Below the pieces are notes generated by a model. That model did not search any database. It was not told the origin of the DNA and saw nothing but the letters and a program-made list of their open reading frames with translations. A stretch of 31,533 bases of DNA, taken from positions 1-31,533 of the IMG/VR virus record IMGVR_UViG_3300036652_000714. One strand, 5' to 3'. Each line of letters opens with the position of its first letter. Position 1 is the first letter of the stretch. This document shows, piece by piece, positions 8,915 through 22,389 of this stretch. Source of the stretch: a virus. A program made the position numbers and the translations under genes.

Positions 8915-9078
8915 TGGGACACAGGGACGAGAAGCAAGACGAGCACGACGCCTTCTGCAAGATGTGCAGGCGCTACGTCTCGCACACGCACAAGTACCTA
9001 GCGTGGGCGAAGCACTCCGCTGCGAAGCGGCAGCGCCGTATCGCGAAGCGACAGATCCGGTCAACCGACTGGGACTAG
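8911..9078 (+). CDS. Small basic CxxC/HxH protein, 55 aa
   Basis: ATG 8911 overlaps the stop of the ParB-like gene (ATGA), suggesting translational coupling. The protein begins MMGHRDEKQDEHDAFCKMCR and has C-x2-C followed by a SHTHKY segment (FCKMCRRYVSHTHKY), a possible single zinc-binding site. The C-terminal half is strongly basic (AAKRQRRIAKRQIRSTDWD), suggesting nucleic acid binding. No family is recognised. Its TAG stop (9076-9078) overlaps the TAG stop of the endolysin gene on the other strand (9077-9075) through the palindrome CTAG, so the two units converge with no space between them. Confidence 0.65.
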   Translation: MMGHRDEKQDEHDAFCKMCRRYVSHTHKYLAWAKHSAAKRQRRIAKRQIRSTDWD

Positions 9079-10613
9079 GAGTGCCACTGCACGTCGCCGC
9101 GGGCCAGGACCACGCCCGGCGTGAAGGCCGCGACCTGCACGCGAAGACGTTCGCCCTTCTTCAGTGCGACGAAGCGCCCGAGGGCAGCGAAGGTGCTGCC
9201 GGGCGTGCCCGCGAACTCCACCACCGGCGTCTGGTGCAGCACCTTGCCGTTGGCGTCCACGATCGCTAGACGTGCCTGCGCGCTGTCTCCCACCGGGATG
9301 CCTGCGAACTGGAACGACGCGTTGATGTCGTAGTTCCCATCCTCATTGGCGATGATGAAGGAGAAGACACCCTTCCCGTCCAGTTCGACGGTGGTCCATT
9401 CAGCGGGCTTGACAGGCTGATTCGGAGCGAAGGTACGGGAGTAAATGGTCTGCATGGCGTCATCCTTGGGGGGAACCGGAGCGGGAACAGGCGCCGGGGT
9501 AGGAGTAGGGGCTGGGATCGGCTTGGGGGCCGGAGCAGGTGCGGGCGCAGGAACCGGGGCAGGAACATGCGCAGGGGCCGGGGTGACAGCCTTAGCGACC
9601 GCAGCCCAGAGGGCAGCGTCGGGCACACCATTGGTCACCGAGCCGGTGTAGCCGCCCTTAGCCTTGGCCAAACGCTCGAACGCCTCGTAAGTGAGGGTGC
9701 CCGGAACGCCGTCCTCGATGCCGGTGTAGCCCCAGTCCTTCTTGAGCAGGACCTGGCAGGCCGTCCAGGTGTACTTCTGCGGGTCACCATCGATCGGACC
9801 CGTGTAGCCACCGTGCTTGGCCCACTCCTGAATGGCTGTGCCCTCGGCCTTGGTAGGCACAGCGGGGACAGGCTTGGGAACCGGCTTGGGAACCGGCGTC
9901 GGAGCAGGAAGCGGAGCGAAGAGGCTGGGGTGTGCGAAGTTGAGGTCCACCGCACCGGGGACACCCGCGATGCGACCGACGCTGGTGTACTGCCAGATGA
10001 TCCAGTTCTTCCAGTGCCCGACGACCGGGGTGCCCGACGGCTTGCTCCCGGTGTTGGCTCCGTAGTTCGCGACCCAGAGTTCGACACCGAACTTGACGAC
10101 CTCGGACCAATCGAAAGCAGTCGTCACGGAGGACGACATGTAGGCCACGAGCCGAGCCTTCGGCTTCAGCGCCCGGACCTCCTTGAACCATGCCAGAGCA
10201 TGCGACGGAGTCCATGGCGTACCCGGAATCTCCGACTCAATGTCTAGAACAAGAAGATCCTCGTCCTGGTAGTGCGAGAGGTTCGCGACGAAGTACCGGG
10301 CGTCCGCAACGGGGTCACCGGCTCCGTTGAACCAATAGTGCCCGAGGTGCTTCTTCGCGGCACGAACCTCGGGAGCCCAAGTGGAGTACATCCGGTCGGT
10401 GTAGCGGCCCGAATCCGAGCCCCCCAACTTGAGGATGACGAACTGGGCGCCCAGTTTCGCGATGTCAACGGCACCGTTCCAGTGGGAGAGGTCGCATCCC
10501 AGTAGAGATGCGGCGGCTGCGGCGAACCCGAAGTCCGGGCGCAGAAGGCCCTCACCACCCCCACTCAGGCGGGGGCGCGAGTTGTCAACATCAACTTCCG
10601 CTACATCAGTCAT
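9075..10613 (-). CDS. Endolysin: GH25 muramidase with cell-wall-binding repeats
   Basis: This 512-residue enzyme would cut the glycan strands of peptidoglycan for host lysis. Residues about 36-232 are a glycoside hydrolase family 25 domain: Asp41 in LLGCDLSHWNG, the DxE pair Asp124/Glu126 in LLVLDIESEI, then LVAYMSS and ELWVANYG, and WIIWQYT near the end. A Pro-rich linker follows, then three short units sharing GYTG (from about 269, 296 and 322), likely cell-wall-binding repeats. A long Ala-Pro linker leads to a C-terminal beta-sandwich-like domain of about 120 residues. No signal peptide is seen, so a holin is needed but was not found here. ATG 10613 has no Shine-Dalgarno site and lies 9 nt after a promoter-like element. 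Sitting between head genes is unusual for a lysin. Confidence 0.9.
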   Translation of the reverse strand: MTDVAEVDVDNSRPRLSGGGEGLLRPDFGFAAAAASLLGCDLSHWNGAVDIAKLGAQFVILKLGGSDSGRYTDRMYSTWAPEVRAAKKHLGHYWFNGAGDPVADARYFVANLSHYQDEDLLVLDIESEIPGTPWTPSHALAWFKEVRALKPKARLVAYMSSSVTTAFDWSEVVKFGVELWVANYGANTGSKPSGTPVVGHWKNWIIWQYTSVGRIAGVPGAVDLNFAHPSLFAPLPAPTPVPKPVPKPVPAVPTKAEGTAIQEWAKHGGYTGPIDGDPQKYTWTACQVLLKKDWGYTGIEDGVPGTLTYEAFERLAKAKGGYTGSVTNGVPDAALWAAVAKAVTPAPAHVPAPVPAPAPAPAPKPIPAPTPTPAPVPAPVPPKDDAMQTIYSRTFAPNQPVKPAEWTTVELDGKGVFSFIIANEDGNYDINASFQFAGIPVGDSAQARLAIVDANGKVLHQTPVVEFAGTPGSTFAALGRFVALKKGERLRVQVAAFTPGVVLARGDVQWHS

Positions 10614-10622
10614 TTCGACTTG

Positions 10623-10634
10623 TACTATCGGAGC
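10623..10634 (-). promoter_or_regulatory. Promoter-like element (GCTCCGATAGTA)
   Basis: Shares the CCGATAGT core. It ends 9 nt before ATG 10613 of the endolysin, with no Shine-Dalgarno site between. Its TAG is also the stop codon of the upstream gene at 10625-10909. This would allow the endolysin to be expressed separately from the giant-gene operon. Confidence 0.6.
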
Positions 10635-10909
10635 GGAGGTTTGTTGAGCCCCTGGTACTGGCTCCGGGCCTGATCAAGCGCCTGTCCCTTGTCCAGCGGG
10701 GTGTCATCGGACTGCCACAGCGAAGCGTGCGGCGTGCCCCGACTGAGTCCGTCCACGAAGGAGGACCACGGGTTCTTCGACCCACGGGAGTCGAAGGTCA
10801 ACTGCCCCCGGGTCTCGTACTTCGGATCGGCGTAGACGTGGTCTCCGGTGTCGTCCCAGATCCCGACCGGCTCACCATTGGGCTTGCAGTGGATCAGATA
10901 GAGCGCCAT
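10625..10909 (-). CDS. Hypothetical protein, 94 aa
   Basis: The start ATG 10909 overlaps the stop of the upstream gene by one base (TGATG), a coupling arrangement. The protein starts MALYLIHCKPNGEPVGIWDD and continues with a Gly/Tyr-rich stretch and a helical end (DKGQALDQARSQYQGLNKPPL). I do not recognise a family. It is the last gene before the endolysin promoter element, with which its stop codon overlaps. Being tightly linked to the giant gene, it may work with that protein as a chaperone or small virion component; this is a guess from position. Confidence 0.65.
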   Translation of the reverse strand: MALYLIHCKPNGEPVGIWDDTGDHVYADPKYETRGQLTFDSRGSKNPWSSFVDGLSRGTPHASLWQSDDTPLDKGQALDQARSQYQGLNKPPLR

Positions 10910-11214
10910 CAGATCGCCTCAATCTCCGCGTAGAGCGCTTGCCCCACTTGCTGGCTCAGCGGGGTGAGCAGGTAGCGGACGCTGCCCTTGTAGACGATCC
11001 AGCCTCGGGGTGTCTCGGTGGCGTCCGCGAGTTCGAAGGTCATCATCTTGTTCGGGTAGGCCCAGCCGCCCATGATCCATTCACCATCCGCGGCCTGCTT
11101 GACCTGGACATCCACGATCTTGAAGTCCGGCTGATTCGGATTCTCCGTCGCCGCCTGAGCCCCGTAGGGGAAGACCCGCTTCACTTCGACCCGAGGGTCA
11201 CCTTGGATGTTCAT
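10909..11214 (-). CDS. Hypothetical protein, 101 aa
   Basis: I place the start at ATG 11214, which overlaps the stop of the giant gene (ATGA) behind GGGGA, rather than an in-frame GTG at 11229 that lies inside the ribosome site. The protein begins MNIQGDPRVEVKRVFPYGAQ and is rich in alternating strands (FKIVDVQVKQAADGEWIMGG, then KMMTFELADATETPRGWIVY). It ends with a helix, LSQQVGQALYAEIEAI. No family is recognised. It is the second gene in the block coupled to the giant gene. Sequence gives no enzymatic clue. Confidence 0.65.
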   Translation of the reverse strand: MNIQGDPRVEVKRVFPYGAQAATENPNQPDFKIVDVQVKQAADGEWIMGGWAYPNKMMTFELADATETPRGWIVYKGSVRYLLTPLSQQVGQALYAEIEAI

Positions 11215-14200
11215 GTGTTCTTCCCCCACGCCGCCATGACGGTCGCCATGGCCTTGTTTACGTCCTGACGCATGATCAGCCGCTCCTCGATGGGTACACC
11301 ACGCAGTATGGCATGTCCGAGCGCCTTCATCTTCTGAATCGCGGCATTGCGGTTCTCTGCCAGATCGAAGATCATGATTTCCATGTAGTCGAAGACGGAG
11401 ATGGCGTTCTGGATGTCGGTCTCGTTGTCCATGTTCCCGTGGCGCAGTGCCTTCAGGATGTCGGCCTGTGCTCTATATAGAGAGTCCTGCTCGCCGTACG
11501 CGTCGTAGTTGAACCCCTTGGTTCCGGTCTGCAAGAACAGCGCCGGGTTCCAGTAGATGACGTGCGGACCGAAGCCCGCAGCCCCTTCGTACTTCGCCTT
11601 GTCATAGGCGGTACGGGCGAAGACGTAGTTGGCACCACCCTTGGGCTGGTCGGACTCCTTCGAGATACCGTGACCGAATACACCAAGCATGCGCAAGCGC
11701 TCCTCGGTGCTGATCGAGTTACCGGACTTGATGAAGTTGGCCAACGACTTGTCCTTACCCATGGTGCCCTGACCAAGCAGCGTCTGCTTCGCCAGGATCT
11801 GCTCCAGGGTGAAGTCGAGCCGGTTCCAGAAAGCGTGACCGGTCGTCTTCTCCGGGTTGGCCAGATCAAAGTGCTGGAACTGCGGCAGGTGCTTCTCCGC
11901 AGCCAGCCACTCATCGACCTTCTTCTGGCCGAATGCCTGCACCGCCTTGTCGTGCCAGAACTGATGCTGATCCGGAACAACCGTCTTCGACGCCGCAATG
12001 GCTTCGATCAGGTGCTTGTCCGCAATCCCGTCGTACGAGACACCATGCTCCGTCATGAGGTCATTCCGGAGTTGCGCCATGTCTTCGAGAACCTGCTTCT
12101 GAGCAGCCGGAATCTGCTGACTGCTGCCGATCAGAGCATTGAACATCTCCTTCCAGTAGATGTCCTCCGTGTGCTCAGGCTCGGCCCCGGACATGTCCAG
12201 GCCCATCTGATTGAGCACGGCCTCCACCCGAGACAGGCTGGCCTCGTGATCGGAACCGGAGAGCCGGAAGCGGATCTGGTCCCACTGCGACTGATCGGTG
12301 CTGGTGTGATCGCTGTTACGGAACCGGATGTACTCACCGGTAGTCAGATGAACGACGTACTCCGAACCATTGTGGCCCGCGGTGCTGAAGGTGTCGGACT
12401 GCTCCTTGAGCCCGCCCTCCTTCAGTGCCCCGGCCAGGTCGCCCGCGTGCTCCTTCACCACCGTGAGCCCGCTGGACTGCTGAGCCCCATTGATGGCAGT
12501 CCAGCCGTTCAAGCCCTCCTTCGCCCCGTCAGGCAACTGCGATGCCGGAACCACAACCCCCATGTTCGTGATGAAGTCTCCGGTAGTCAGTTCGGTGTAG
12601 GCCAGACCCTTCTCCGGGTTCAGGTAGGTGGCCGGAGTGGTCTTCGCCGCGATCGGGTGGTAGATCCCGAACAGTGACTTCTCGGTCTTACGCTGCTCCT
12701 TCTGCGCCTGCTCCACCTCGTAAGCGGCGTCCAGGTAGTGGGTGAGCGCAGCACGGTACTGACCCAGCGCGCCCGGATCCACTGCATTGCCCGAGGGGAA
12801 CTTGATCGGATCGGTGCCCTGCCCAGCAGTGACGGGAAGGGTGTCTCCGAACTGGGCATCCGCAAGAAGTTGATCCTTGGTCTCCTGGAACTTCTGCATG
12901 ACCTCCGGGCTGGGGTTCCCGGACTCCAGGTGATCACTGACCTCGCGACCCGCGGTGGAGAGGGCCTTGCGGAAGGGCTCCATGTTCGGGAAGTTGGCCA
13001 GCGACTGCGCACTCGCGTACGAGCCACTGGTATCAGTGCTGAGATGGCCATCAAGCCAGGACAGCAACTTGCCCTCGGCGTACTTGTTGACGGCGAACAG
13101 CCCCTTGGCGACCGGATCGCCGTTGGAGTTCTTCTCCTGCCAAATCAGGACGGAACCCTTCTTGATGTCCGGAGAAGCGTGGAACGTGGTCACGCCCCAC
13201 ACCGCCTTGTCCTGAATGGCCGCGCTGAGGTCGGGCTCATGGAAGCCAGACTGCAAGTCCTCGTTCAAGGCCTTGACGGGAGGCTCCGGCTTGGTCAGTC
13301 CGGACTTGGCGTAGATCCCCGTCCACAACTTGTTGATGTCATCCACGATCCCGTGCTTGCGATCGAGGAAGGCCTGGATGACGGCTTCCTTCGAGCCGGG
13401 ACCCTGCTGGTAGTGCGGCCGGTTCGCCAGGCCCTTCGCGATGATCGAGACAGCCGATGCATCCGGCGACTTGAAAATCTTGTTCGCAGCCTTCAGCGCC
13501 GCCTTGTACGCGCCATCCATCTGCTCCTGGGTGAGCACACCGGCCTTGGCCAGCATGAACAGTTTGGAAGCGATGGTCTCGGCCTGGTAGTTCATGCCGG
13601 GGCCGTTCAGCCCGTCCCAGGTGCCGAAGGCAGCGAAGGCACGACCCTTGTCAATGCCGACGATGTTGCCGTCCGGGGTCATCAGGAGGTTGTCGCCGTG
13701 GCCGTCGTTGTTGTCGATCGCCCAGTCCAGGACGTGCTCGGCAGCGATCTGGCCCAACTGCTTCGGGTGCAGGCTCGCGATGTCCACCGGGCCGTCAGCG
13801 AAGTTCATGTTCCCGACGTTCGGGATCAGGGACTGGAGGAGGCCAACCTGGCCACCGAACATGGGCTCGCCGGAGGCAGTCGGTAGAGACTGGACGGATG
13901 CCGTCGGCTCCGTGAAGCCCCAGAGCGCGCCCAGTTGCAGGGCAGCCGCCTCGATTTCTGCACGGTAGTCCTTGCCCGGATCCACCGGCTTGAAGATGTA
14001 CTGATTGCCGTGGTCTTCCACCAGGTAGGCGGGATGCTGGCCCTGGGCAATCTCCTTCACCAACGAGAACTTCGGCTTGGCTTCCTCCGCCGCAGCCTCC
14101 TCCCGGAGCCGGGTGAAGTGATCCGTCAGGAACTTCTTCTGCGTGCCCCAGGAGCCGCCGTGTGCCATATCCTGAAGGCTGGTGTAGTTGTTCTTGTACG

Positions 14201-17200
14201 GCGAGGACCAGGCGTCCCACGACTTCTGGAGTTCGGCGTTCCCGGCGTTGTCCTTCAGGTACTCGGCCGGGGCGTCGGTGAGCCCGTTGTAGATGTCGTT
14301 CTCGGTGGGGAACGGACCCTTGTCGAACCACACGGCGTACGACTTCGCAGGCTGGACGTTGTCCGTCCACACCGGAGTCGGACTGATCTGAGGGTCGCCG
14401 TTCTGCGCCTTCACAGCCGCCATGGCGGACAACTGATCCGTGGCCTGCTTGTCTCCGGTGCGGTGGTACGTGACCCAGGAACGCTGCTGCGCGAGGGTCA
14501 GGTGCTCCGGGTGCTGCATGTGCGCTGCGATGAGGTAGTTCTGCAACTCCTCGGTGGAAGCAGCCACACCGATGGAGGTCCAGTTACCCTCGACCGGAAC
14601 ACCAGCCGGGACCTCGCCCTCGACTGCGGGACCCCACTGGATCTTGTTCGTCGCCGCATTGCCCTCGTAGCCCGGGTGCAGGTACCCCGACGGGTGCACC
14701 TTCCCCTTGTTCGAGTGTGACGCGACCTCCAAATCGTAGGCGTGGGCGAAGTTGCCCTTCTTGACCGCGTTGATCCAATCCATCTTGGCGTACTTGGTCA
14801 TGCCGGTCAGGTTGAAAATCTTCTGCGCGCCGAGTGCTTCAGTGATCTGCTTCACATACGCGTTGAGCGTGGCCGGGTCGGTGCTGCTGCTGATCTTCGG
14901 GATCGAGACCAACTGGAGCGGGGGCTTCGCCTGGCCGTTCGTCGTCCAGTCGAACAGGGCCGACGTGTTGGCGTCGGGGATCGCCGTGTCCACCTTCGCA
15001 AGAAGATTTGCGACCGACTGCGAGAAGAAGTTGGCCATCGCCTCCTTCACATCCGCGGGTGCGTCCTGCATGAAGTAGTGCCCGGTGGTGGCTGCCATCC
15101 CCGGACCGGCCGTTTCGTTGTACGCCTTGACGAATGCGCTCAACGACAGAGGGAAACCCGCAGCGGACAAGTTGTCCGTGACGCCATACCAGTAGGGCGT
15201 CTTGAACAGGTCCGGATGCTGATCCAGGTACTTCTGGAGGTCGAGCAAAGCCGGAATGGTCGTCGGAGTATCGAGCAGGGAGACACCACCGGAGTAGCCA
15301 ACCGGTGTAATCGAGGTGCCGTTGAGGTCGAGGATCTGGCCCTTGTTGAAGGCCAACTTCAACTTCTTCAGGTCACCGATGTTCTCGCCGTTCTTCGCCA
15401 CCTGCTGACCATTGGCAGTAACGAGAATGCTGTCACCGGCCTTGGACTTCAGGTAGTAGTTGCCATCCGGGATGTCCTTGCTCGTCGGAACGGCAACGGC
15501 AGCCTTGGTGACCGCACCAGGAGCCTTCGACTCCTTGGGCGCAATCTCGGGCACCGGGTGGTTGGCACCCAGGTAGTTGCTCATCCCGGCGTCGTGGTTC
15601 TTCAGCACGTTCGCCTTGGACAACTTGGAAGTCGTGCCCGTGCTCGCGACGTAGACACCGGTGCCGTCCGGGAGGACGTGCATGGCGGCCTTGCCGTTGG
15701 AGATGTACTTCCCGGGTGCGAAGGGCTGTGCCTCGGTGGGGGTGTGGGTCAGTGTCGCGTGCCCATCGGCTACGTCCTGCGCGACGACGGCCGGGTTGAG
15801 CGTGCCTCCACTCTCGCCATCCGAGTTGTACAGGTTCCAGGCGTAGGCCATCTTCTTGGCCACGGCACCGTCGGCGTAGGTCACGACGCTGTTCGGCTTG
15901 GCATCCAGAATCTCAGGGCTGTAGCCGATGTTCGCCGGGTCGCCCTTGTCGGCCTCGGAGACCAGGTAGATGGGCGCCGTACCGATGCCGGTAACGTCTC
16001 CCACATCCTGCCCACCGGGGCTCTGCCACATGCCGTCGGGCTTGCGCTCCAGGACGCGACCGAAGCCGCCCGAGTAGAAGACACGGGAACCCACACCGAG
16101 AGCAGCGACCTCCGCAGGGGAGAGCGGATGAGCGTCGGGAGTGGGGATGTGCTCCACATGGAACTTCCCGGCTGTGATCTGGTCCTTCACACCCTCGGGC
16201 GTGTAGTTGCCCAGGCCTGCAATCTGCACGGTCCCCGAGGTGGACTTAGCCGCGTCATAGATCGTCCCGGATGCAGCGTGGTAGGTGAACTGCGTCTTCT
16301 CCGGGAAGGCGTGCATCTCCTCGACGGTCTTCGGGTCGCCGGTCGGCAACTTCTTGAGTTCCTTGGTCATCTCGAAATGACCCTTGCTGGCATCGATCTG
16401 GTCGGGGCTGAACTCACCCATCTGAGGGTTGTGCCACTGACCGTTAGTACCCATGGTGAAGGGATACTCAGTCCCATTCACTGAGTGAAGGATCATCTGC
16501 GAGCCCACACCGGCGTTGTTGATCTGGTCCTGCGTCGCTGGAGTGAACTCCTGGGTCTGCGCCACAGCCTGGTCGTGCGTCTGCATCTCAGCCTCAGAGG
16601 CCGCAGGGGTAGCCGACGGGGTTACAGCGTCATGAGAAGCATCATGCCCCTTGAACTCCATGCCGGTGTAGGCCGTCGGGTTCATCTCCTCCTTGTCGAA
16701 GAGACTGCCGGACAGGCTGGACTCGAAGGACTGACCACCGGGCATCAGCGTGTAGTAAACCGTGCCCCCCGGGTAGGTCTTGATCTGGTCACCGGGAACC
16801 AACTTGTCGAAGGCAGCCTGATCAACGTGGTCGCCCGGCTGAAGTCCGTGTCCGGTGTCCTCAGGCTTGTCGAAGTTCTCCAATGCAGTGGGCAACTTCG
16901 GCTCTTCGGCCTTGGAGAACTCGTTCTTGTACTTCGAGACATCCAACTTCGTTGCACCGGGACCGCCCACGTAGTGAACGCCATGCTTGTTCATCACAGA
17001 AGCAGAATTCGGATCGTGCGAGTTAGCCACGATGGCAAGTGTGCTGACGTTGTTCTGGGTCCCATGGTCGTTGTTGACCTTGTCGCCCGCCTTGATCCCG
17101 GTGTGCTGCACATCGGGGTGGGTCGCACCGTCATGGGTGTGCCACGCAATGACGTGCCCATCCGGGAGAGCCTTGACCTGCTCACCGGTAAGGAGGTCGC

Positions 17201-20200
17201 CCGGCTGATGGGGCAACTTCTCCTTGGCCTTGAAGCGCCCATCCTTCTCCAGCGGAGTACCCACCGTGCCCGTAGTGATGTCCTTCTCGGGGCGGACCGT
17301 GACCTTCTTCGGAGCGGCCTTGGGCGGGGCGACGAAGCGCCCGTCCTTCTCCAGCGGCGTGCCGATCGTGCCGGTGGTGATGTCCTTCTCAGGACGGACC
17401 GTGACCTTCTTCGGGCCAGTCTCCTTCGGCAGCAGGCTCTTCAGGTGGTCGATGAACTTCTGCTTGGTGATGGTCTTGTCCTTGTTGAACCCCACCTCCG
17501 GCAACGTGATCGGGCTCAACTCACCAAGCGGGCTGCCCGCCTTGTTGAGAATGGACTTCACCAACTTGCCGTTGTCGGCTTCCAGCGCCTGAATGGCGTG
17601 CCGGATTTCGTCTGCGGTGTAGTCACCACCGTTGAAGCCCTGCTGTGTGGGCTTCGGCTCCTTGGCTCCGATGTGGATCTTCGCGACCTCTTCGGCCTTG
17701 CTCTCCGCCTTCTGCTCCGGGGAGAGTTGGTTGTGCAGCAACTTCACGACGGCGGCCTTCGGCTGCATCGTCGGGAACTGCTTCTTGGCCTCGGCCTTGA
17801 GTTCGGCCTGGTGGCTCGCCAGCGGGTTGCTGGGGATGCTCTTGAAGCCGTAGGAGACCTGGAACGCACCGGCGTTCTTCAGCGCATCGTGCGCCGCCTG
17901 GATGTCCTGCGTGCTGAACTGCGGACCGTTCTCCCACAGTTGCTTGGAGTCGGACGAGCCAGACCCCTCCGCATTGCCCCCGCTGGGCGCGGCAGGCGCC
18001 TCGGGAGGCGTCGGAGGCTGCGCGGCCCCACCACCAGATCCTGCGGGCTCAGGAGCCTTCTCAGGAGCAGGCGTGGCAGCCTTCGGGGCCTCGTAACCGA
18101 TGAGAGTGGACTTGTTCCACTCCCCCTTCTGCATGACGCCCTTGTGGTTGTGGTAGTAGACGTGGACCTTGCCCTTGGGCGCGTTGATGTGATCGACGCC
18201 GAAGACGGTGCCCGTGGCGATCTTGTCGCCCTTGGTCAACTGCTCGGCCTTCTTCATCGCCGGACCGGACTTCTTCTCCGGAGCGGGAGCGGCCGGGGGC
18301 GCGGCGGGAGCCTTGGGAACCTCAGTGGCGGCCGGGGGCTCAGGAGCCTTCTCCGGAGCCGGGGCTGCGCCCGAGGTCTTGGAGTGGTACGCCATCTTGC
18401 CCGCGTCAGCAGCCGTCTTCATCAGGCCGACATCACCGACGCCGTTGCTCTTGTGTGAGAGGAACTGGCCCTGGCCCTGGCTGGTGTACTGAACTCCGGA
18501 GGGCGTGTGCTCCACCGTGTGCCCCGGAGGCAGGCTCTTCAGATCCTGGTGGGACAGGACTTCACCGGGCTGGTGGTGCACCTCTCCCGGCGTGGTGTTG
18601 GCCGGGTTGACCAGGCTCGGGTTGAGCGCGGCCTTCTTGGTGAACGCCTCCGCCTGGTCGTAGGAGGCGAACACCTTGCCCTCGCCCGGGTGGTACGTGC
18701 CATCCGAGTGGGCAGGATCATGAACCATGAACACCACGTCAGGCTCGCCGTTGTTCCACGGCTTGAAGGTGTTCTTGTCCCAGCCGTCCGGGGCGTAGTT
18801 GTCATCCCACTTCACGCGGGCGGACGGCACGTAGCCGACCTTGGCGTAGATCCCGGGCAGCACAGTGTCAAAGGCGTCGAGACGCCGGGCACCGAGTTCG
18901 GTCTGCATCGTGAGCATCGCGACCGAGCCACCCTTGTGCGGGGACTTCGGGCTGATGAACAGCGAGACGGCGTTGTTCCCATCGACGGCAAAGCCAGCGG
19001 TGCCGTCCTGCGTGACGAAGAGCCGCATGTTCTTGTACTCGTCCACCGGGTGGACGTAGACAGCAGCAGCGTAGGGGTTGTTCTCCTTGAGCCGGGAGAT
19101 GGCGTCCTGGAAGAACTGCGCGCCCTTGTCGGCGTGGAGTTCGACCATCTGCGGGGTGACAAGCCCCTTCGCGGCGAGGGCCTGGACCGCAGGAGAATGC
19201 GGCAGTTCACCCTTGACGATTTCGGGGGGGATTACCCCAGGCCCAGCCCCATTGCCATCAGGATGTTGCTGTCCGGCCACTGCTTCTGAAGATCCACCAG
19301 TTGATCCGGCGTTGGCGTTGCCGTTCCCGCCATCATGTGCAGGAACGTTTCCCGATCCTGCGGGCTGAGCGTTCCCGCTTGCAGGTTGGTTTCCACCTGC
19401 TCCTGCTCCGGCTTCTGATCCGACATTGCTCTCCTTCGGCGCTACGAATGGCTGATACTCCGGCTTAGCCAGATTCTCGTTCTTGGGCGGCGGGGTAGCC
19501 GCTGCGGGCTTCTCTACACTACCCGCGTCCGCCTTCTTAGGCGTGTTGAGACCCTGACCTGCCGTGCCTCCACCCGGAGTGTTGGTGAAGTCGTTCATCG
19601 ACTTCCCGGTGTTGGGCTTCCCGTTGTTCGCGTTCGGGTACTTCTCATCGAACGACAGACCGTGGTTGGCTCGCTCCACCCCGATTTGGGTCGTCTTCAG
19701 CCAGGAATGCTCCTGGAGCATTCCGGCCTCGCTCCGCGTGACAACGCGAACGCGACCGGGGGTCTCGGTCTTGAAGGTCTTCGTGACCGGGTCGCCATTG
19801 ACCTTGTCCCCAACCTGAATCTGGGCGGCCGTGATCTGGTCCGGCCCGGTGGGAACCGGCGACTCCTTCCACGCCTCCTGCGGAGCGGAGTACGGGCTGG
19901 CCGGTGCCTCCTTCTTCGGGATAGCCGGGCCGGTGCCGTCCTCATAGTTGTTGGCGATGAGCCGGAGGGTGCCCATCTTCTCGGCAGGAATGCCGTTCCA
20001 GGTCTTGTCCTCCCCCTTGACCATGTCCTTGCCGTCGATCTGGAACTTGGCCCCTACGGGAGCCTTGTTCAAGAACGCGAGCCACTGCTCCTTGGACATG
20101 CCCTTGAAATCATGAGTCAGGCCGGGAGCAGCACCCTTGATGTGGAGTTCGCCCGAGGTGACCAACTTCTGGACGACGGACTCATCCACCGTGGCGTTGA

Positions 20201-21296
20201 ACAGCGCGTGCTTCCACGTGCCATCGGGCTGCTTGATGAACTCGGTCTCACCATCACCGTTGACCAGTTCTGCCCCGGGGTGCGCGTGCATGAGCGCACC
20301 GGTGATCGACGCGTGCTGCCCCGCCTCCTCCGGGGTCATGGCAGCGGGCGGCTCCACGGGCGGAGCACCCTTGGCAGGAGGGGATGCGGCTGCCGCCGCC
20401 GTGTTGGCGTGGTCGCTCTGCACCAGGGCTGCGGCATAGCGCGCGGCGGCCTTGGTGTCGTGGGTGTTCTGGATGTGCGCCTTCAGGTCGCTGGTGACCG
20501 GAGCGGCGACATCGAAGTTCTTCGTCTGGTAAAGATCGTTGCTCTTCGCCCCCGGGGGGAGCACGTCAGCGAAGGCCTGCTGAAGATCCATCGGGACATC
20601 GACTTCGCCCACGTGGGTGAAGGCGTGCACGGTCTCGTCCGGCGTGATGAGGATGCGGACGTTCGGCATGCCCTTGGGCTGGAACATCCGGGAACCAGCC
20701 GGGACGTTGTACTTCATCGGCCCGACGGAGAACTCGTTCGGACCGGTCAACGTTGACGGGTGGGGCTGGAACTGCGTGTCGGGGTTGCCGCTGACCAGGT
20801 GATGCTGGTGGTCCAGCGCGAGGGCAGCCGCCTCGGAAGCGGGGGGAGCAAGGTGCCGGGGGTGATCTGCGGGCAGGTTGTACGGGTGGTGGCTCGGGAG
20901 GTTCTTGAAGATCGTGGCTGACGGGTTCTTGGCATATGCCGCGGCGGACTTCTCCGCCTCACTCTTCGTGCCCAGGGCGCCAGGCGGAACGCCCTTGAAC
21001 TTGAACTTGGCGATCTTGGAAGCAGCGTTCGCTGCCTTGGCCTGCGCATCCTGCGCGGCTTCCGCCTTGTCCGCAATTTCGTCGGACTGGGCCTCGGCTG
21101 CATCCTGCGCTGCCTCGGCCGCATCCTGCGCAAGATCGCCCCCGTTGGCTGCCGTGGCCGCCTCTATCTCCTCCGGCGTAATGAACGCACCGAGAGGGAG
21201 ATGGAAGAACTCAGCGCCCTGAAGGGTACGGACGTGCCGCATCCCGAGACTCAGGAGAAGAATCTCCTCGTACGGATCGAGGTCGCTCAAGGCCAT
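11211..21296 (-). CDS. Giant multidomain virion-module protein (3,361 aa) with acetyltransferase-like and PI3/4-kinase-like domains
   Basis: One uninterrupted frame fills nearly a third of the window. ATG 21296 directly abuts an AGGAG site; a TTG two codons later would have better spacing. Segments in order: an Ala-rich helix (about 45-95); SH3-like beta modules split by Ala/Pro/Gly linkers; an acetyltransferase-like region (about 740-858; LPGIYAKVGYVP, GEPDVVFMVHDP); more beta modules, many with xxGDK or PGDxxxxxxxxxLPxGH; a duplicated unit (1296-1355); helical parts (about 2010-2400); a PI3/4-kinase/HipA-like domain (about 2405-2665) with Lys2436, Glu2447 or Glu2449, Asp2531-x-His-x-Asp-Asn2536 and Asp2549-Lys-Gly; and a C-terminal domain (about 3179-3275; STEERLRMLGVFGHGIS, GGANYVFARTAY). 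It follows the MuF gene, so it is probably packaged in the head and ejected, like known polyvalent phage proteins. Host targets are unknown. Coding bias is normal except at 19232-19426. Confidence 0.85.
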   Translation of the reverse strand: MALSDLDPYEEILLLSLGMRHVRTLQGAEFFHLPLGAFITPEEIEAATAANGGDLAQDAAEAAQDAAEAQSDEIADKAEAAQDAQAKAANAASKIAKFKFKGVPPGALGTKSEAEKSAAAYAKNPSATIFKNLPSHHPYNLPADHPRHLAPPASEAAALALDHQHHLVSGNPDTQFQPHPSTLTGPNEFSVGPMKYNVPAGSRMFQPKGMPNVRILITPDETVHAFTHVGEVDVPMDLQQAFADVLPPGAKSNDLYQTKNFDVAAPVTSDLKAHIQNTHDTKAAARYAAALVQSDHANTAAAAASPPAKGAPPVEPPAAMTPEEAGQHASITGALMHAHPGAELVNGDGETEFIKQPDGTWKHALFNATVDESVVQKLVTSGELHIKGAAPGLTHDFKGMSKEQWLAFLNKAPVGAKFQIDGKDMVKGEDKTWNGIPAEKMGTLRLIANNYEDGTGPAIPKKEAPASPYSAPQEAWKESPVPTGPDQITAAQIQVGDKVNGDPVTKTFKTETPGRVRVVTRSEAGMLQEHSWLKTTQIGVERANHGLSFDEKYPNANNGKPNTGKSMNDFTNTPGGGTAGQGLNTPKKADAGSVEKPAAATPPPKNENLAKPEYQPFVAPKESNVGSEAGAGAGGNQPASGNAQPAGSGNVPAHDGGNGNANAGSTGGSSEAVAGQQHPDGNGAGPGVIPPEIVKGELPHSPAVQALAAKGLVTPQMVELHADKGAQFFQDAISRLKENNPYAAAVYVHPVDEYKNMRLFVTQDGTAGFAVDGNNAVSLFISPKSPHKGGSVAMLTMQTELGARRLDAFDTVLPGIYAKVGYVPSARVKWDDNYAPDGWDKNTFKPWNNGEPDVVFMVHDPAHSDGTYHPGEGKVFASYDQAEAFTKKAALNPSLVNPANTTPGEVHHQPGEVLSHQDLKSLPPGHTVEHTPSGVQYTSQGQGQFLSHKSNGVGDVGLMKTAADAGKMAYHSKTSGAAPAPEKAPEPPAATEVPKAPAAPPAAPAPEKKSGPAMKKAEQLTKGDKIATGTVFGVDHINAPKGKVHVYYHNHKGVMQKGEWNKSTLIGYEAPKAATPAPEKAPEPAGSGGGAAQPPTPPEAPAAPSGGNAEGSGSSDSKQLWENGPQFSTQDIQAAHDALKNAGAFQVSYGFKSIPSNPLASHQAELKAEAKKQFPTMQPKAAVVKLLHNQLSPEQKAESKAEEVAKIHIGAKEPKPTQQGFNGGDYTADEIRHAIQALEADNGKLVKSILNKAGSPLGELSPITLPEVGFNKDKTITKQKFIDHLKSLLPKETGPKKVTVRPEKDITTGTIGTPLEKDGRFVAPPKAAPKKVTVRPEKDITTGTVGTPLEKDGRFKAKEKLPHQPGDLLTGEQVKALPDGHVIAWHTHDGATHPDVQHTGIKAGDKVNNDHGTQNNVSTLAIVANSHDPNSASVMNKHGVHYVGGPGATKLDVSKYKNEFSKAEEPKLPTALENFDKPEDTGHGLQPGDHVDQAAFDKLVPGDQIKTYPGGTVYYTLMPGGQSFESSLSGSLFDKEEMNPTAYTGMEFKGHDASHDAVTPSATPAASEAEMQTHDQAVAQTQEFTPATQDQINNAGVGSQMILHSVNGTEYPFTMGTNGQWHNPQMGEFSPDQIDASKGHFEMTKELKKLPTGDPKTVEEMHAFPEKTQFTYHAASGTIYDAAKSTSGTVQIAGLGNYTPEGVKDQITAGKFHVEHIPTPDAHPLSPAEVAALGVGSRVFYSGGFGRVLERKPDGMWQSPGGQDVGDVTGIGTAPIYLVSEADKGDPANIGYSPEILDAKPNSVVTYADGAVAKKMAYAWNLYNSDGESGGTLNPAVVAQDVADGHATLTHTPTEAQPFAPGKYISNGKAAMHVLPDGTGVYVASTGTTSKLSKANVLKNHDAGMSNYLGANHPVPEIAPKESKAPGAVTKAAVAVPTSKDIPDGNYYLKSKAGDSILVTANGQQVAKNGENIGDLKKLKLAFNKGQILDLNGTSITPVGYSGGVSLLDTPTTIPALLDLQKYLDQHPDLFKTPYWYGVTDNLSAAGFPLSLSAFVKAYNETAGPGMAATTGHYFMQDAPADVKEAMANFFSQSVANLLAKVDTAIPDANTSALFDWTTNGQAKPPLQLVSIPKISSSTDPATLNAYVKQITEALGAQKIFNLTGMTKYAKMDWINAVKKGNFAHAYDLEVASHSNKGKVHPSGYLHPGYEGNAATNKIQWGPAVEGEVPAGVPVEGNWTSIGVAASTEELQNYLIAAHMQHPEHLTLAQQRSWVTYHRTGDKQATDQLSAMAAVKAQNGDPQISPTPVWTDNVQPAKSYAVWFDKGPFPTENDIYNGLTDAPAEYLKDNAGNAELQKSWDAWSSPYKNNYTSLQDMAHGGSWGTQKKFLTDHFTRLREEAAAEEAKPKFSLVKEIAQGQHPAYLVEDHGNQYIFKPVDPGKDYRAEIEAAALQLGALWGFTEPTASVQSLPTASGEPMFGGQVGLLQSLIPNVGNMNFADGPVDIASLHPKQLGQIAAEHVLDWAIDNNDGHGDNLLMTPDGNIVGIDKGRAFAAFGTWDGLNGPGMNYQAETIASKLFMLAKAGVLTQEQMDGAYKAALKAANKIFKSPDASAVSIIAKGLANRPHYQQGPGSKEAVIQAFLDRKHGIVDDINKLWTGIYAKSGLTKPEPPVKALNEDLQSGFHEPDLSAAIQDKAVWGVTTFHASPDIKKGSVLIWQEKNSNGDPVAKGLFAVNKYAEGKLLSWLDGHLSTDTSGSYASAQSLANFPNMEPFRKALSTAGREVSDHLESGNPSPEVMQKFQETKDQLLADAQFGDTLPVTAGQGTDPIKFPSGNAVDPGALGQYRAALTHYLDAAYEVEQAQKEQRKTEKSLFGIYHPIAAKTTPATYLNPEKGLAYTELTTGDFITNMGVVVPASQLPDGAKEGLNGWTAINGAQQSSGLTVVKEHAGDLAGALKEGGLKEQSDTFSTAGHNGSEYVVHLTTGEYIRFRNSDHTSTDQSQWDQIRFRLSGSDHEASLSRVEAVLNQMGLDMSGAEPEHTEDIYWKEMFNALIGSSQQIPAAQKQVLEDMAQLRNDLMTEHGVSYDGIADKHLIEAIAASKTVVPDQHQFWHDKAVQAFGQKKVDEWLAAEKHLPQFQHFDLANPEKTTGHAFWNRLDFTLEQILAKQTLLGQGTMGKDKSLANFIKSGNSISTEERLRMLGVFGHGISKESDQPKGGANYVFARTAYDKAKYEGAAGFGPHVIYWNPALFLQTGTKGFNYDAYGEQDSLYRAQADILKALRHGNMDNETDIQNAISVFDYMEIMIFDLAENRNAAIQKMKALGHAILRGVPIEERLIMRQDVNKAMATVMAAWGKNT
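17232..17412 (-). repeat. Direct repeat of 79 nt inside the giant gene
   Basis: Two nearly identical 79-nt copies (17232-17310 and 17334-17412, 102 nt apart start to start) encode KKVTVRPEKDITTGTI/VGTP followed by LEKDGRF. The repeat period of 34 codons keeps the frame. High DNA identity suggests recent duplication of a linker module. Confidence 0.8.
19232..19426 (-). CDS. Overprinted 64-aa ORF nested inside the giant gene
   Basis: ATG 19426 follows GAAGGAGAGCA, a strong Shine-Dalgarno site. The ORF lies in the +1 frame relative to the giant gene and ends at TAA 19234-19232. Its product has a normal composition (begins MSDQKPEQEQVETNLQAGT, then DRETFLHMMAG, DQLVDLQKQWPDSNILMA and GLGLG), unlike shadow ORFs. 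By my hand count 50 of 64 nested codons end in G or C, against 25 of 64 giant-frame codons over the same bases; flanking giant-gene codons are strongly GC-ending. The giant frame here encodes only a Gly/Asn/Ala/Ser linker. This suggests the nested frame is the one under selection. The product is probably two amphipathic helices; function unknown. It may be a former separate gene absorbed by fusion of two larger genes. Confidence 0.6.
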   Translation of the reverse strand: MSDQKPEQEQVETNLQAGTLSPQDRETFLHMMAGTATPTPDQLVDLQKQWPDSNILMAMGLGLG

Positions 21297-21336
21297 CTCC
21301 TGTCGTCGGGCGCCAACAAGATTTCGCCCACGAAGG

Positions 21337-21348
21337 GACTATCGACCG
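21337..21348 (-). promoter_or_regulatory. Promoter-like element, variant (CGGTCGATAGTC)
   Basis: Keeps CGATAGT. It lies in the 77-nt gap between the 74-aa gene (stop at 21374) and the giant gene, 40 nt before ATG 21296. It could drive the giant gene and the two small genes after it. Confidence 0.45.
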
Positions 21349-21373
21349 GAGCAGCCAAACAAGATTTTCGGAG

Positions 21374-21598
21374 TCAGTCCGGGAAGGAGACGGCGCCCGG
21401 GATCTTCTCCAGTTCAGCGGAGATGTCAGTGATGTCGCCTGTGAGAACGAGCCCACTGGTACGGATCTGCTTGGGGTCGAGGCCAGAGAACGTGTAGTCC
21501 TTCTCCGTAATCCTGGCATCCTGAAGCACGGTCAGCAGCGCCAGCACGGCGGAGGGAAAGGAGTCGAAGAGGAACCGGGTACTGGTGCTGACGATCAT
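21374..21598 (-). CDS. Hypothetical protein, 74 aa
   Basis: ATG 21598 overlaps the stop of the MuF gene (ATGA). The protein begins MIVSTSTRFLFDSFPSAVLA, a hydrophobic N-terminal helix, and continues with KDYTFSGLDPKQIRTSGLVL and DISAELEKIPGAVSFPD. I do not recognise it. The N-terminal stretch (FLFDSFPSAVLALLTVL) could be a membrane helix or a buried core helix; it is too short and polar-edged to be sure. By location it belongs to the head module, between MuF and the giant protein. Confidence 0.65.
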   Translation of the reverse strand: MIVSTSTRFLFDSFPSAVLALLTVLQDARITEKDYTFSGLDPKQIRTSGLVLTGDITDISAELEKIPGAVSFPD

Positions 21599-22389
21599 GA
21601 CTTGTGTCCGAACTTCGAGATGATCTTCTTCAGGGTCTTGACGACGGCCAAGAAGAACGCGAGCGGCATCTTGCGAACCTGGTCAGTGGACATGTCGGTG
21701 ACCACCTTCTGTGGGGCATCGAAGTTCATGCCCTCGTAGGCGTTCTCCAGCGTGCTGATCAGCACCACCAGGGTGCACTGGCAGTTCGGATGCCGGGGCG
21801 GCCCCTCCAGGTTGTGGTAGACCTTCGTCCCCAGCCCCTGGCCGAAGTCCTCTTCGAGTTCCACGTCCTTGCCGTGCAGCGCAGCACACATTGGGCAGGG
21901 GGTGTTGTTGACGAAGTTCGCCCACCAGACCTTGCGGAGTTGGAAGCCGAAGTCCTTGAGTTCCTTGTAGCCCTTGAGTTGCGCGTCGGTGTAGCCCCGC
22001 TGGGTGCCGACGCCGATGGAGGCCTGGATCCGCAACTGGAGTCGCCGCTGCGCTAGAGCATCCCGCTCCGAGGCCTTGTAGTCCTGGAGGTTCCGGCGCA
22101 CATCCATGAGGAGCGCGTTCAGGTACGCGGAGGAGAAGACTCGCTCCTGCGGCTGCCAGTCCTCCAGTCCGGACTGGGCAGCGACCAGATTGCTGCCTAT
22201 CTCGCCGGACGCCCGATACGCCTGGCGCACCAGATTCTCTAGACGGTAGCGGATCTGCTGGCCAGTGATCTGTCCGGCTTCATACTGCTGAATCAGTGCT
22301 GCCACACGGGAACGTGCCTGTGACTCCAGCGAGTTGACCGCGCTGTGAGCACCAACGGTGGCACTGATCTGGTCGCGGTACGAGGTCAT
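21595..22389 (-). CDS. MuF-like minor head protein
   Basis: The 264-residue product starts at ATG 22389, overlapping the portal stop (TGATG). The first 155 residues are helical. The C-terminal part holds the SPP1 gp7/Mu gpF head-morphogenesis motif: Cys165-x2-Cys168 and His172 in NTPCPMCAALHG, then GPPRHPNCQC with His200, Cys203 and Cys205, a probable zinc site. MuF proteins bind the portal, are present in a few copies per head, and help organise DNA entry or ejection. Standing directly after the portal is the standard place. In many phages MuF is fused to effector domains; here the effector-like domains are in the separate giant gene downstream. Confidence 0.88.
   Translation of the reverse strand: MTSYRDQISATVGAHSAVNSLESQARSRVAALIQQYEAGQITGQQIRYRLENLVRQAYRASGEIGSNLVAAQSGLEDWQPQERVFSSAYLNALLMDVRRNLQDYKASERDALAQRRLQLRIQASIGVGTQRGYTDAQLKGYKELKDFGFQLRKVWWANFVNNTPCPMCAALHGKDVELEEDFGQGLGTKVYHNLEGPPRHPNCQCTLVVLISTLENAYEGMNFDAPQKVVTDMSTDQVRKMPLAFFLAVVKTLKKIISKFGHKS

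What the first reader, a model, noticed from the sequence alone, without database searches (positions are those of the whole stretch)
11211..21296. 10-kb single gene encoding a giant, probably ejected, multidomain virion protein
Seen: one uninterrupted 3,361-codon frame with linkers of low complexity, many short beta modules, an acetyltransferase-like stretch, a PI3/4-kinase-like domain and a conserved C-terminal domain, placed directly after portal, MuF and a small gene. Known: MuF proteins and polyvalent phage proteins often carry effector domains delivered with the DNA, and giant genes are known from some actinophages. Inference: this is a cargo protein packaged in the head that modifies host molecules at infection. 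The mix of a kinase-like and an acetyltransferase-like domain in one virion protein is unusual.
Basis: partly seen in the sequence, partly recalled or inferred. Interest (0 to 1): 0.88.

Follow-up and report, generated by a model that had tools for sequence, protein, structure and literature searches.

The report
Giant modular phage head-cargo protein
A phage of the kind that infects soil actinobacteria carries one 10-kilobase gene for a 3,361-residue protein that strings together several enzyme domains and looks built to be loaded into the virus head and sent into the host cell, which would let the virus start rewiring the cell the moment it infects.

Summary
The 10-kb gene is real: 3,361 codons, minus strand, identical in a second 124-kb contig. 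It lies between portal/MuF and the protease-scaffold and capsid genes, the slot of Microbacterium phage Magritte gp17. The acetyltransferase-like stretch, PI3/PI4-type kinase and beta modules hold up. Kinase and this ART occur together in 21 of 26 slot proteins compared, and sit in one chain with MuF in two metagenome-assembled genomes. The acetyltransferase is fused to a MuF-type protein in a cultured Microbacterium phage. The giant has no cysteine, like the 3,400-residue virion polymerase of N4-like phages. Its N-terminus carries a peptide (RxVRTPEGAxFYGLPIGxxI) found elsewhere almost only downstream of the portal, in portal tails, MuF proteins and, in other actinophage genera, ARTs. A coupled 94-aa gene follows 20 of 22 kinase-ART proteins and 0 of 5 others. 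Best reading: a packaged, ejected multi-effector ('polyvalent') protein with a candidate head-loading tag and a cognate small partner. Packaging, ejection and catalysis are inferred, not shown. New variant of a known kind.

The parts
11211..21296 (-). giant gene, 3,361 aa, 358 kDa, 0 Cys
   Evidence: identical copy L081
21171..21245 (-). residues 18-42: N-terminal tag (candidate head-loading peptide)
   Evidence: A3
20487..20774 (-). residues 175-270: N-terminal module shared by many giants
   Evidence: blastp
20169..20294 (-). beta module 1 (residues 335-376)
   Evidence: HMM
19995..20072 (-). beta module 2 (residues 409-434)
   Evidence: HMM
19215..19661 (-). longest low-complexity linker (residues 546-694)
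18630..19205 (-). residues 698-889: GNAT-like acetyltransferase domain
   Evidence: phrog_2563; A5
17427..17945 (-). residues 1118-1290: module M, function unknown, matched in 23 of 26 slot proteins (12 of them training rows, several others in part only)
16395..16523 (-). beta module 3 (residues 1592-1634)
   Evidence: HMM
16014..16109 (-). beta module 4 (residues 1730-1761)
   Evidence: HMM
13299..14078 (-). residues 2407-2666: PI3/PI4- and CtkA/HipA-like kinase domain; K2436, E2449, D2531, N2536, D2549
11256..11819 (-). residues 3160-3347: ADP-ribosyltransferase-fold domain; E3292 invariant in 30 of 30
   Evidence: model m7fe34ba7a723
10909..11214 (-). gene A, 101 aa, ATG overlaps the giant's TGA (ATGA)
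10625..10909 (-). gene B, 94 aa, ATG overlaps the stop of gene A (TGATG); tracks kinase-ART proteins
21374..21598 (-). 74-aa gene, 43% to Magritte gp16
21595..22389 (-). MuF-type minor capsid protein, 44% to Magritte gp15
   Evidence: PF04233 28.7 bits (cut-off 29.6), PHROG head morphogenesis
22389..24131 (-). portal protein (Mu type)
   Evidence: PF06074 E 1.5e-31
24112..25983 (-). terminase, 59% to Magritte gp12
9075..10613 (-). GH25 lysozyme gene inside the head operon
   Evidence: PF01183 E 2.9e-22
7438..8541 (-). Mu I-like protease/scaffold, 47% to Magritte gp19
   Evidence: PF10123 26.3 bits, cut-off 25.2
6963..7397 (-). 144-aa gene, 53% to Magritte gp20
5750..6793 (-). major capsid protein, 68% to Magritte gp21
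   Evidence: PF03864 E 1.7e-21

Best explanation
The gene encodes a polyvalent head-cargo protein. It is made late from the head operon, is drawn into the procapsid beside the portal by its N-terminal RxVRTPEGAxFYGLPIG peptide (inferred), and is kept free of cysteine so that the 358-kDa chain of small modules on flexible linkers can pass the tail unfolded (inferred). On entry it acts on host macromolecules with a GNAT-like acetyltransferase, a PI4K/HipA-like kinase and a DarT/SopF-like ADP-ribosyltransferase, to bias host transcription, translation or defence toward the phage (substrates unknown). Kinase and ART form one effector unit. The small coupled gene B (perhaps also A) is the unit's cognate partner, most likely an inhibitor/immunity or chaperone protein that keeps the enzymes harmless in the producing cell (inferred). 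Shown: gene, place, fold matches of predicted models, conserved catalytic-type residues, MuF fusions elsewhere, tag distribution, cysteine depletion, co-occurrence of gene B. Not shown: packaging, ejection, catalysis, targets.
For: (1) Place: terminase-portal-MuF-74 aa-giant-A-B-lysozyme-protease/scaffold-144 aa-MCP; the named genes other than lysozyme, A and B match Magritte gp12, gp13, gp15, gp16, gp19, gp20, gp21 in order, with gp17 in the giant's slot. (2) Fusions: the same kinase is in one chain with a VG15/MuF-type domain and another type of ART in prophiFVLQ01-1 gp56, one of five Mycobacterium records annotated 'minor capsid + ADP-ribosyltransferase'; MuF (weak), kinase and this same ART family are in one chain in MAG contigs L145 and L149; MuF matches at the N-terminus of the slot protein in L071 (E 3e-5) and, weakly, L091/L068; the same GNAT on the VG15 protein gp4 of UtzChips. 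(3) Fold: kinase best matches CtkA Z 15.5 and PI4KIIalpha Z 14.9, catalytic-type residues nearly invariant; C-terminus DarT Z 9.0/8.2/8.0, Tpt1 7.2, SopF 6.6. (4) Tag: 37 places in 23 of 30 records, 36 within 6.8 kb downstream of the portal start (of 21 that were not training rows or a copy, 20); 14 places in other actinophage genera, all downstream of the portal region; 0 in reversed ORFs. (5) Cysteine: 1 in 41,321 aa over 15 tagged giants, against 0.905% in terminase and 1.25% in MuF ORFs; N4-like virion giants are reported cysteine-free. (6) Gene B after 20 of 22 kinase-ART proteins, 0 of 5 without.
Against: No proteomics. The tag also sits in portal tails and MuF proteins, which stay in the particle, so it may mark head assembly rather than ejection. 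Ten of 26 slot proteins, nine of them kinase-ART, carry no recognised tag, and 7 of 30 records have none at all. The named tagged phages were found by searching with the tag, so '7 of 10' is no prevalence; Gordonia DalanDe gp27 with the tag lies behind genes annotated as minor tail proteins. A 16th tagged giant, L101, has 2 Cys. Untagged L111/L112/L117 hold 14-17 Cys, but untagged L092, L120, L128 hold none, so the link of tag and cysteine is loose. Portal and MCP are also cysteine-poor (0.16%) while MuF, a head protein, is rich. Part of the kinase-ART co-occurrence was selected: 9 of the 21 came from a query spanning both domains. Kinases without this ART exist (L121, L150, the Mycobacterium fusions). 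The ART has no Pfam match, and Z 7-8 is typical of models without a clear match. Pfam does not call this kinase at its cut-off. Magritte lacks kinase, ART and gene B, and its gp17 has no direct blastp match to the giant.
Confidence: 0.66

Rival explanations
1. A structural or assembly protein of the head interior (a scaffold-like or portal-collar filler) that stays in the capsid; the enzyme folds are relics or serve binding only.
For: The tag is shared with portal C-tails and MuF proteins; low cysteine is shared with portal and MCP; place beside the scaffold gene.
Against: Relatives with alignable portals often have no giant: 29 of 37 loci with both ends held have no ORF of 900 aa or more in the slot (several loci are copies of one virus, 2 of the 37 came from another query, and loci whose giant runs past the flank are not counted). 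Catalytic-type residues are kept almost without exception. Domain content is swapped between relatives (GNAT, NUDIX, kinase-ART), as for effectors.
Confidence: 0.15
2. A late intracellular takeover or anti-defence protein made in the producing cell and not packaged.
For: A related kinase exists as a stand-alone 271-aa gene elsewhere in one of these genomes (L121/G002). Onyinye gp16, a related kinase protein annotated ADP-ribosyltransferase, lies before the terminase gene, not after the portal.
Against: MuF fusions place the same domains on a head protein; tag and cysteine depletion are unexplained by it.
Confidence: 0.12
3. A phage-borne polymorphic toxin aimed mainly at competitors or at non-productive hosts, with gene B as immunity gene, rather than at easing the phage's own infection.
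For: [quoted passage not shown] PMC5576092 section 5); gene B tracks the kinase-ART half.
Against: MuF toxins are described from temperate phages; temperate life is untested here. Delivery would still be by the virion, so this differs in purpose more than in mechanism.
Confidence: 0.2
4. The giant is a precursor cut by the Mu I-like protease during head maturation into several separate effectors (the tag being a pro-piece).
For: A Mu I-like protease/scaffold is encoded four genes downstream. The Burro giant of over 4,400 aa is thought to be the band of about 250 kDa in virions, whole or processed (PMC7302621 passage).
Against: No cleavage site was looked for or identified here.
Confidence: 0.25

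Closest known systems
Polyvalent proteins (Iyer et al. 2017, PMC5512222)
   Same: several effector domains in one polypeptide, beside late virion genes; ARTs, GNATs and kinases among the domains; thought to be packaged and injected
   Different: the paper's kinases are a truncated Ser/Thr/Tyr type, mainly of Verrucomicrobia-Chlamydia and Bacteroidetes (pro)phages, and its polyvalent ARTs of the Tox-ART-HYD2 clade; here a PI4K/CtkA-like kinase with a DarT/SopF-like ART. The words 'PI3' and 'HipA' do not occur in its text. The tag and gene B were not in the passages I read
MuF toxins (Jamet et al. 2017, PMC5576092)
   Same: head-operon place after the portal; swapped effector modules; small ORF directly downstream
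   Different: MuF is a separate gene here; temperate life untested
Head-packaged ARTs, Nudix and MuF-fused ARTs of phages (PMC9503650)
   Same: ARTs and Nudix domains beside or fused to MuF, portal and other head genes, thought to be packaged
   Different: families named in the passages seen for MuF fusions are Alt/VIP2 and N4-ART; this ART has no sequence-library match
N4-like virion RNA polymerase (3,398-3,500 aa)
   Same: giant virion protein without cysteine, thought to thread through the tail
   Different: no polymerase match; long-tailed (siphovirus-type) gene order in Magritte
Giant genes of Microbacterium phages Burro and cluster EK (PMC7302621)
   Same: over 4,400-aa, probably virion-associated products in actinophages
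   Different: tblastn of kinase, C-terminal, GNAT, M and tag queries against 50,697 phage records gave no Microbacterium phage other than Magritte, UtzChips, Barnstormer and Caron; whether Burro is in that collection was not checked
'Minor capsid and ADP-ribosyltransferase fusion' of Mycobacterium prophages (prophiFVLQ01-1 gp56)
   Same: same kinase (31% identity, HMM E 1e-32) with an ART in a head protein
   Different: VG15/MuF-type N-terminus in the same chain; ART of the PF03496 type; 1,188 aa; no tag in the record

Membership tests
Polyvalent proteins | two or more effector/enzyme domains in one polypeptide | tested here: met
   GNAT-like, PI4K-like kinase, ART fold
Polyvalent proteins | encoded among virion genes | tested here: met
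Polyvalent proteins | packaged in the virion and delivered with the DNA | not testable with these tools
   needs proteomics and ejection assays
MuF toxins | MuF domain in the same polypeptide as the effector | tested here: not met
   MuF is a separate gene 21595-22389; fused in L071 and, by weaker matches, L145, L149, L091
MuF toxins | small ORF directly downstream | tested here: met
   genes A and B, ATGA and TGATG overlaps
MuF toxins | temperate phage | not tested
   no integrase or repressor search was made
PI3/PI4- and HipA-like kinase superfamily | fold (of the predicted model) | tested here: met
   CtkA Z 15.5 (rmsd 4.2, 215 aligned), PI4KIIalpha Z 14.9 (4.1, 226)
PI3/PI4- and HipA-like kinase superfamily | catalytic-type Lys, Glu, Asp, Asn, Asp (roles recalled) | tested here: met
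   invariant in 12 of 12; of 27 sequences: K2436 26, E2449 24 (2 D), D2531 25, N2536 21 (4 Q), D2549 25
PI3/PI4- and HipA-like kinase superfamily | Pfam PF00454 gathering score | tested here: not met
   15.1 of 27.1 bits in this protein; the stand-alone relative L121 reaches 27.2
ADP-ribosyltransferase superfamily | fold (of the predicted model) | tested here: met
   rows 1-19 are ART-fold entries by my reading of their titles, led by DarT Z 9.0 (3.3 A, 160 aligned); Foldseek SopF E 3.7e-4
ADP-ribosyltransferase superfamily | catalytic Arg/His and Glu | tested here: inconclusive
   R3159 27 of 27 rows that reach it, E3292 30 of 30; superposition on ART sites was not checked
GNAT acetyltransferases | homology to named acetyltransferases | tested here: met
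   28% to Streptomyces R4 gp79 'acetyltransferase'; named by annotators, activity not tested
GNAT acetyltransferases | match to a GNAT of known structure | tested here: inconclusive
   best 2qec E 0.11
N4-like virion RNA polymerase | RNA polymerase domain | tested here: inconclusive
   no such Pfam or PHROG match; only W2180-3361 was folded

The most novel reading that the evidence does not exclude
Large actinophages share a general cargo code: a peptide of about 25 residues (RxVRTPEGAxFYGLPIGxxI) that docks any protein bearing it to the portal/head interior, so that unrelated effectors (giant kinase-ART chains, VIP2-type ARTs, 2H/Acb1-like phosphodiesterases) are loaded by the same route. The kinase-ART pair is a conserved effector unit with its own neutralising partner (gene B), and kinase and ART work as a relay or switch on one host target.
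Probability: 0.35. Interest if true: 0.85.

Novelty: new variant of a known kind. Interest (0 to 1): 0.68.

Why it matters
If the tag is a loading signal, it gives a sequence handle to predict which unknown actinophage proteins are delivered with the DNA, and a way to load foreign proteins into phage heads. The kinase-ART pair with a coupled partner gene adds an effector type to the set of candidate ejected weapons and makes host targets testable. Lack of cysteine, known from N4-like polymerases, may serve as a cheap further predictor of ejected giants.

Tried and rejected
DNA-level relatives of the giant in named phages: none. The C-terminal domain by sequence: no phage tblastn match, no PDB sequence match, only scattered weak Pfam matches; only the fold search placed it. 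Module M: no phage match, not folded, function open; my first M profile (24 of 26) was built partly on rows aligned only by MAFFT, so I rebuilt it from 12 blastp-supported rows: 23 of 26, that is 11 of 14 non-training proteins, several in part only. Self-comparison by blastp found no repeats; only an iterated HMM did. The 102-aa ORF 21211-21519 was rejected as the small gene (overlaps the giant; no Magritte match). The GNAT-kinase mix as defining feature was rejected (GNAT 2 of 26). Families not listed in the fold tables are not excluded. Rows dropped: L105 from the gene-B count (identical to L082); the weak kinase match in L094 (1543-1620, E 0.007) not counted as a kinase; L122 counted although its kinase match is partial and lacks some residues; L101 not in the 15-protein cysteine count (with it 3 Cys in 44,127 aa); the gene-B match of G006 at 69251 (E 0.009) is far from its giant and not counted. 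Of the 37 tag places, 15 are training rows of A3 and one is the identical copy in G001. Places in named phages were set against annotated genes by hand; in GMA2 no portal is annotated. No paper search used the motif letters; I saw no description of the tag or of this kinase-ART pairing in the listings, a limited open-access library. Papers seen: PMC5512222 passages and section 11; PMC5576092 abstract, outline, section 5; PMC9503650 and PMC7302621 passages; PMC3715699 and PMC3915230 one passage each. T4 Alt is known to me from the PMC5512222 passages.

Full report
OBSERVATION. The reading frame is exact: 11211..21296 on the minus strand, 3,361 codons, with coding-type GC at the three codon positions throughout. 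The product is 358 kDa and has no cysteine. The window is a 31.5-kb linear virus record. The same protein, letter for letter, is in a 123,755-nt contig (L003/L081). Library matches are few: Pfam gives only a sub-threshold PI3/PI4-kinase hit (E 0.023), PHROGs only phrog_2563 at 748-858 (E 4.6e-9).

SURROUNDINGS. On the same strand, in order: terminase (24112-25983), Mu-type portal (22389-24131), MuF protein (21595-22389), a 74-aa gene (21374-21598), the giant, genes A and B, a GH25 lysozyme (9075-10613), a Mu I-like protease/scaffold (7438-8541), a 144-aa gene (6963-7397) and the major capsid protein (5750-6793). Microbacterium phage Magritte (133 kb, host M. foliorum) is the closest of the named phages by portal (59.5%; the other 19 rows listed are 25-29%, 174 rows were not listed). 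Terminase 59%, MuF 44%, capsid 68%; in the same slot it has gp17, a 1,991-aa 'hypothetical protein'. Magritte gp14 and gp18 had no match among the window's ORFs. The giant and gp17 have no direct blastp match; they are linked through the N-termini of other giants, the tag, and module M (E 1.4e-8 with a profile not trained on gp17). The giant's start has AGGAG directly against the ATG; TTG at codon 3 is a possible alternative start.

RELATIVES. The portal query gave 79 loci. Where portal and scaffold both lie in the held DNA (37 loci, 35 from the portal query and 2 from the kinase-ART query, several of them copies of one virus), the slot runs from 877 to 13,802 nt, and 8 of 37 have an ORF of 900 aa or more in it (loci whose giant runs past the 10-kb flank are missing from this count). 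So the giant looks like an optional insert. Twenty-six slot proteins of 966 to 3,542 aa were compared with HMMs made here: module M in 23, tag in 16, the C-terminal domain in 21, a kinase match in 22 (L094's is short and weak, L122's partial), the GNAT in 2. The 21 with the C-terminal domain all have a kinase match. Twelve of these (the window and 11 from portal loci) were picked by kinase tile or ORF length, not by the ART; the other nine came from a query spanning both domains. NUDIX domains are in two giants (L094, E 1.9e-8; an insert after the kinase of L092, seen in A1; 2 of 17 scanned). Magritte gp17 has a sub-threshold GNAT match (E 0.0012).

KINASE. Residues 2180-3361 were modelled with 12 sequences (pLDDT 78). 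Residues 2408-2664 align with Helicobacter CtkA (Z 15.5, 4.2 A over 215), PI4KIIalpha (Z 14.9, 4.1 A over 226), actin-fragmin kinase (13.0) and MavQ (12.4). The lysine, glutamate, aspartates and asparagine expected of such kinases are invariant in 12 of 12 and nearly so in 27 wider relatives: K2436 26 of 27, E2449 24 (2 D), D2531 25, N2536 21 (4 Q), D2549 25; most gaps and changes are in L094 and L122. That these positions are catalytic is recalled knowledge of the superfamily.

C-TERMINAL ART. Residues 2940-3361 were modelled alone with 30 sequences (pLDDT 88, pTM 0.87). Residues 3160-3347 align best with DarT (Z 9.0, 3.3 A over 160; 8.2; 8.0), then Tpt1 (7.2), SopF (6.6), CopC/OspC3 and CteC; the first 19 rows are ART-fold entries by my reading of their titles. 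Foldseek puts SopF first (E 3.7e-4) and DarT next (E 0.018-0.039 and probability 0.94-0.99 for four entries). The tool warns that Z below 8 may be background; the consistency of the list is what convinces me. E3292 is invariant in 30 of 30 and R3159 in 27 of 27 rows that reach it. The sequence libraries tried do not see this family.

GNAT-LIKE DOMAIN. Residues 698-889 share 40-43% identity with L094, with the C-terminal part of UtzChips gp4 and with a 3,125-aa protein of Limnohabitans phage DC33, and 28% with Streptomyces phage R4 gp79 'acetyltransferase'. UtzChips gp4 ('minor capsid protein') is a VG15 protein (PF25310 E 5.4e-20) with this GNAT at its end.

MuF FUSIONS. Five Mycobacterium records annotated as minor capsid plus ADP-ribosyltransferase match the kinase; the one analysed, prophiFVLQ01-1 gp56, has VG15 (E 2e-37) and PF03496 (E 1.5e-15) domains around it. 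In MAG contigs L145 and L149 one ORF of 1,519 and 1,537 aa holds a MuF match (E 2.6e-4 and 2.6e-6), this kinase and this same ART family (E 1e-35 and 5e-38), directly after a portal-sized ORF of about 510 aa and before a 158-aa ORF. In Gordonia phage Sixama a cysteine-free 774-aa protein with a weak kinase match (E 0.0026) lies between the portal and a tagged ADP-ribosyltransferase; a Sixama protein of the same length is among the structural matches of our model in the viral library. Kinase and ART thus recur together with different ART types, though kinases without this ART exist (L121, L150).

TAG. The N-termini of 15 giants and of Magritte gp14 share R-x-V-x-T-x-x-G-x(6)-P-x-G-x-x-I. Over 30 whole records its HMM finds 37 places at E <= 0.01 in 23 records; 36 lie within 6.8 kb downstream of the portal start, one does not (G031:101249, E 0.003). 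Sixteen are training rows or a copy; of the other 21, 20 are portal-side: portal C-tails, MuF proteins, gp14-like genes and second slot proteins. In ten named actinophage records (seven of them found by searching with the tag, three without) it finds 14 places in the seven at E <= 1, and none in the three. These seven belong to seven other genera. The places are Mareelih and Sixama ADP-ribosyltransferases and short frames just before the capsid gene, DalanDe gp21, gp22 and gp27 ('capsid maturation protease', behind genes annotated as minor tail proteins), Cantare gp11 and gp12, GMA2 orf10 and orf13, Chidiebere gp27 (twice) and Phinally gp18: all within about 14 kb downstream of the portal gene where one is annotated. 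Pfam sees an ART in Mareelih gp79 and Chidiebere gp26 (the latter with only a weak tag, E 0.11), and 2H/Acb1-like domains, below cut-off, in GMA2 orf10 and Phinally gp18. In the portal-centred loci all 65 hits among 6,639 ORFs are on the portal strand and none is in reversed sequences. Peptide searches of 50,697 phage records gave 22 and 53 records, mostly Gordonia, many at weak E-values.

CYSTEINE. Fifteen tagged giants have 1 Cys in 41,321 residues; ORFs of the loci scanned: terminase 286 in 31,597, MuF 80 in 6,381, scaffold 70 in 14,487, portal 65 in 39,571, capsid 19 in 12,065. A 16th tagged giant has 2. Untagged slot proteins vary: L111/L112/L117 have 14-17, L071, L091 and L122 4, L127 2, L092, L120 and L128 none. 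N4-like giants found in virions are reported free of cysteine, explained by passage through the tail (PMC3715699, PMC3915230).

PARTNER GENES. Gene A begins on the giant's stop (ATGA) and gene B on the stop of A (TGATG). An HMM of B, iterated on these downstream regions, finds a relative shortly after 20 of 22 distinct kinase-ART proteins (two of the 20 only in part; missing in L111, and in L092 with only 558 nt downstream) and after 0 of 5 slot proteins without kinase-ART (Fisher p 2.6e-4, not corrected for relatedness). With the single window sequence, 10 of 12 kinase-ART records have B at that place and 0 of 4 others have it anywhere. B has no PHROG and no tblastn match in the phage collection.

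MECHANISM. Most likely: synthesis from the head operon, capture beside the portal through the tag, ejection as an unfolded cysteine-free chain, refolding of modules, and modification of host macromolecules by acetylation, phosphorylation and ADP-ribosylation, with B (and A) guarding the producing cell. All steps after synthesis are inferred. T4 Alt and the N4 polymerase are the working precedents.

KNOWN VERSUS NEW. Polyvalent and MuF effectors, head-packaged ARTs and Nudix proteins, cysteine-free ejected giants and giant virion-associated proteins in Microbacterium phages are known, and PI3/PI4-kinase-like phage proteins exist in databases by name. New here, as far as the named searches show: the kinase-ART unit on a non-MuF giant, an ART family without a sequence-library match, the recurring portal-side tag, and the coupled partner gene. 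On re-checking, the confidence of the best explanation was lowered from 0.68 to 0.66 because the tag and cysteine evidence proved looser than first written.

Noticed in passing
window 9075-10613: A GH25 lysozyme gene stands inside the head operon, between the giant cassette and the protease/scaffold gene; Magritte's annotation has none there.
   Followed up: no
L121 9995-10810 (G002:22344-23147): A stand-alone 271-aa relative of the kinase, about 55 kb from the portal of the same genome; it passes the Pfam PF00454 cut-off.
   Followed up: partly
L137 876-10253: Limnohabitans phage DC33, filed under Inoviridae though 39 kb, has a 3,125-aa protein with the same GNAT family at 41%; the classification looks wrong.
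   Followed up: no
L092, between kinase and C-terminal ART: A NUDIX-like insert within the kinase-ART half, seen in alignment A1; NUDIX in 2 of 17 giants.
   Followed up: no
L145 9056-9532, L149 11397-11873: 158-aa ORFs directly after MuF-kinase-ART genes, not matched by the gene-B HMM: possibly analogous partners.
   Followed up: no
window 27671-28612 and 28622-29803: Two genes upstream of the terminase with weak Ig-like (Big_9) and DUF1565 matches, E 0.006 and 0.009; possible surface or fibre-like proteins.
   Followed up: no
window 21285-21301: AGGAG abuts the giant's ATG without a spacer; the true start may be the TTG at codon 3.
   Followed up: no
G031 101249-101314: The one tag-like match far from the portal (E 0.003, frame of 1,944 codons).
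   Followed up: no
L122 4472-13357: A kinase-ART giant whose kinase match is broken and lacks some catalytic-type residues; perhaps a decayed or interrupted copy.
   Followed up: no
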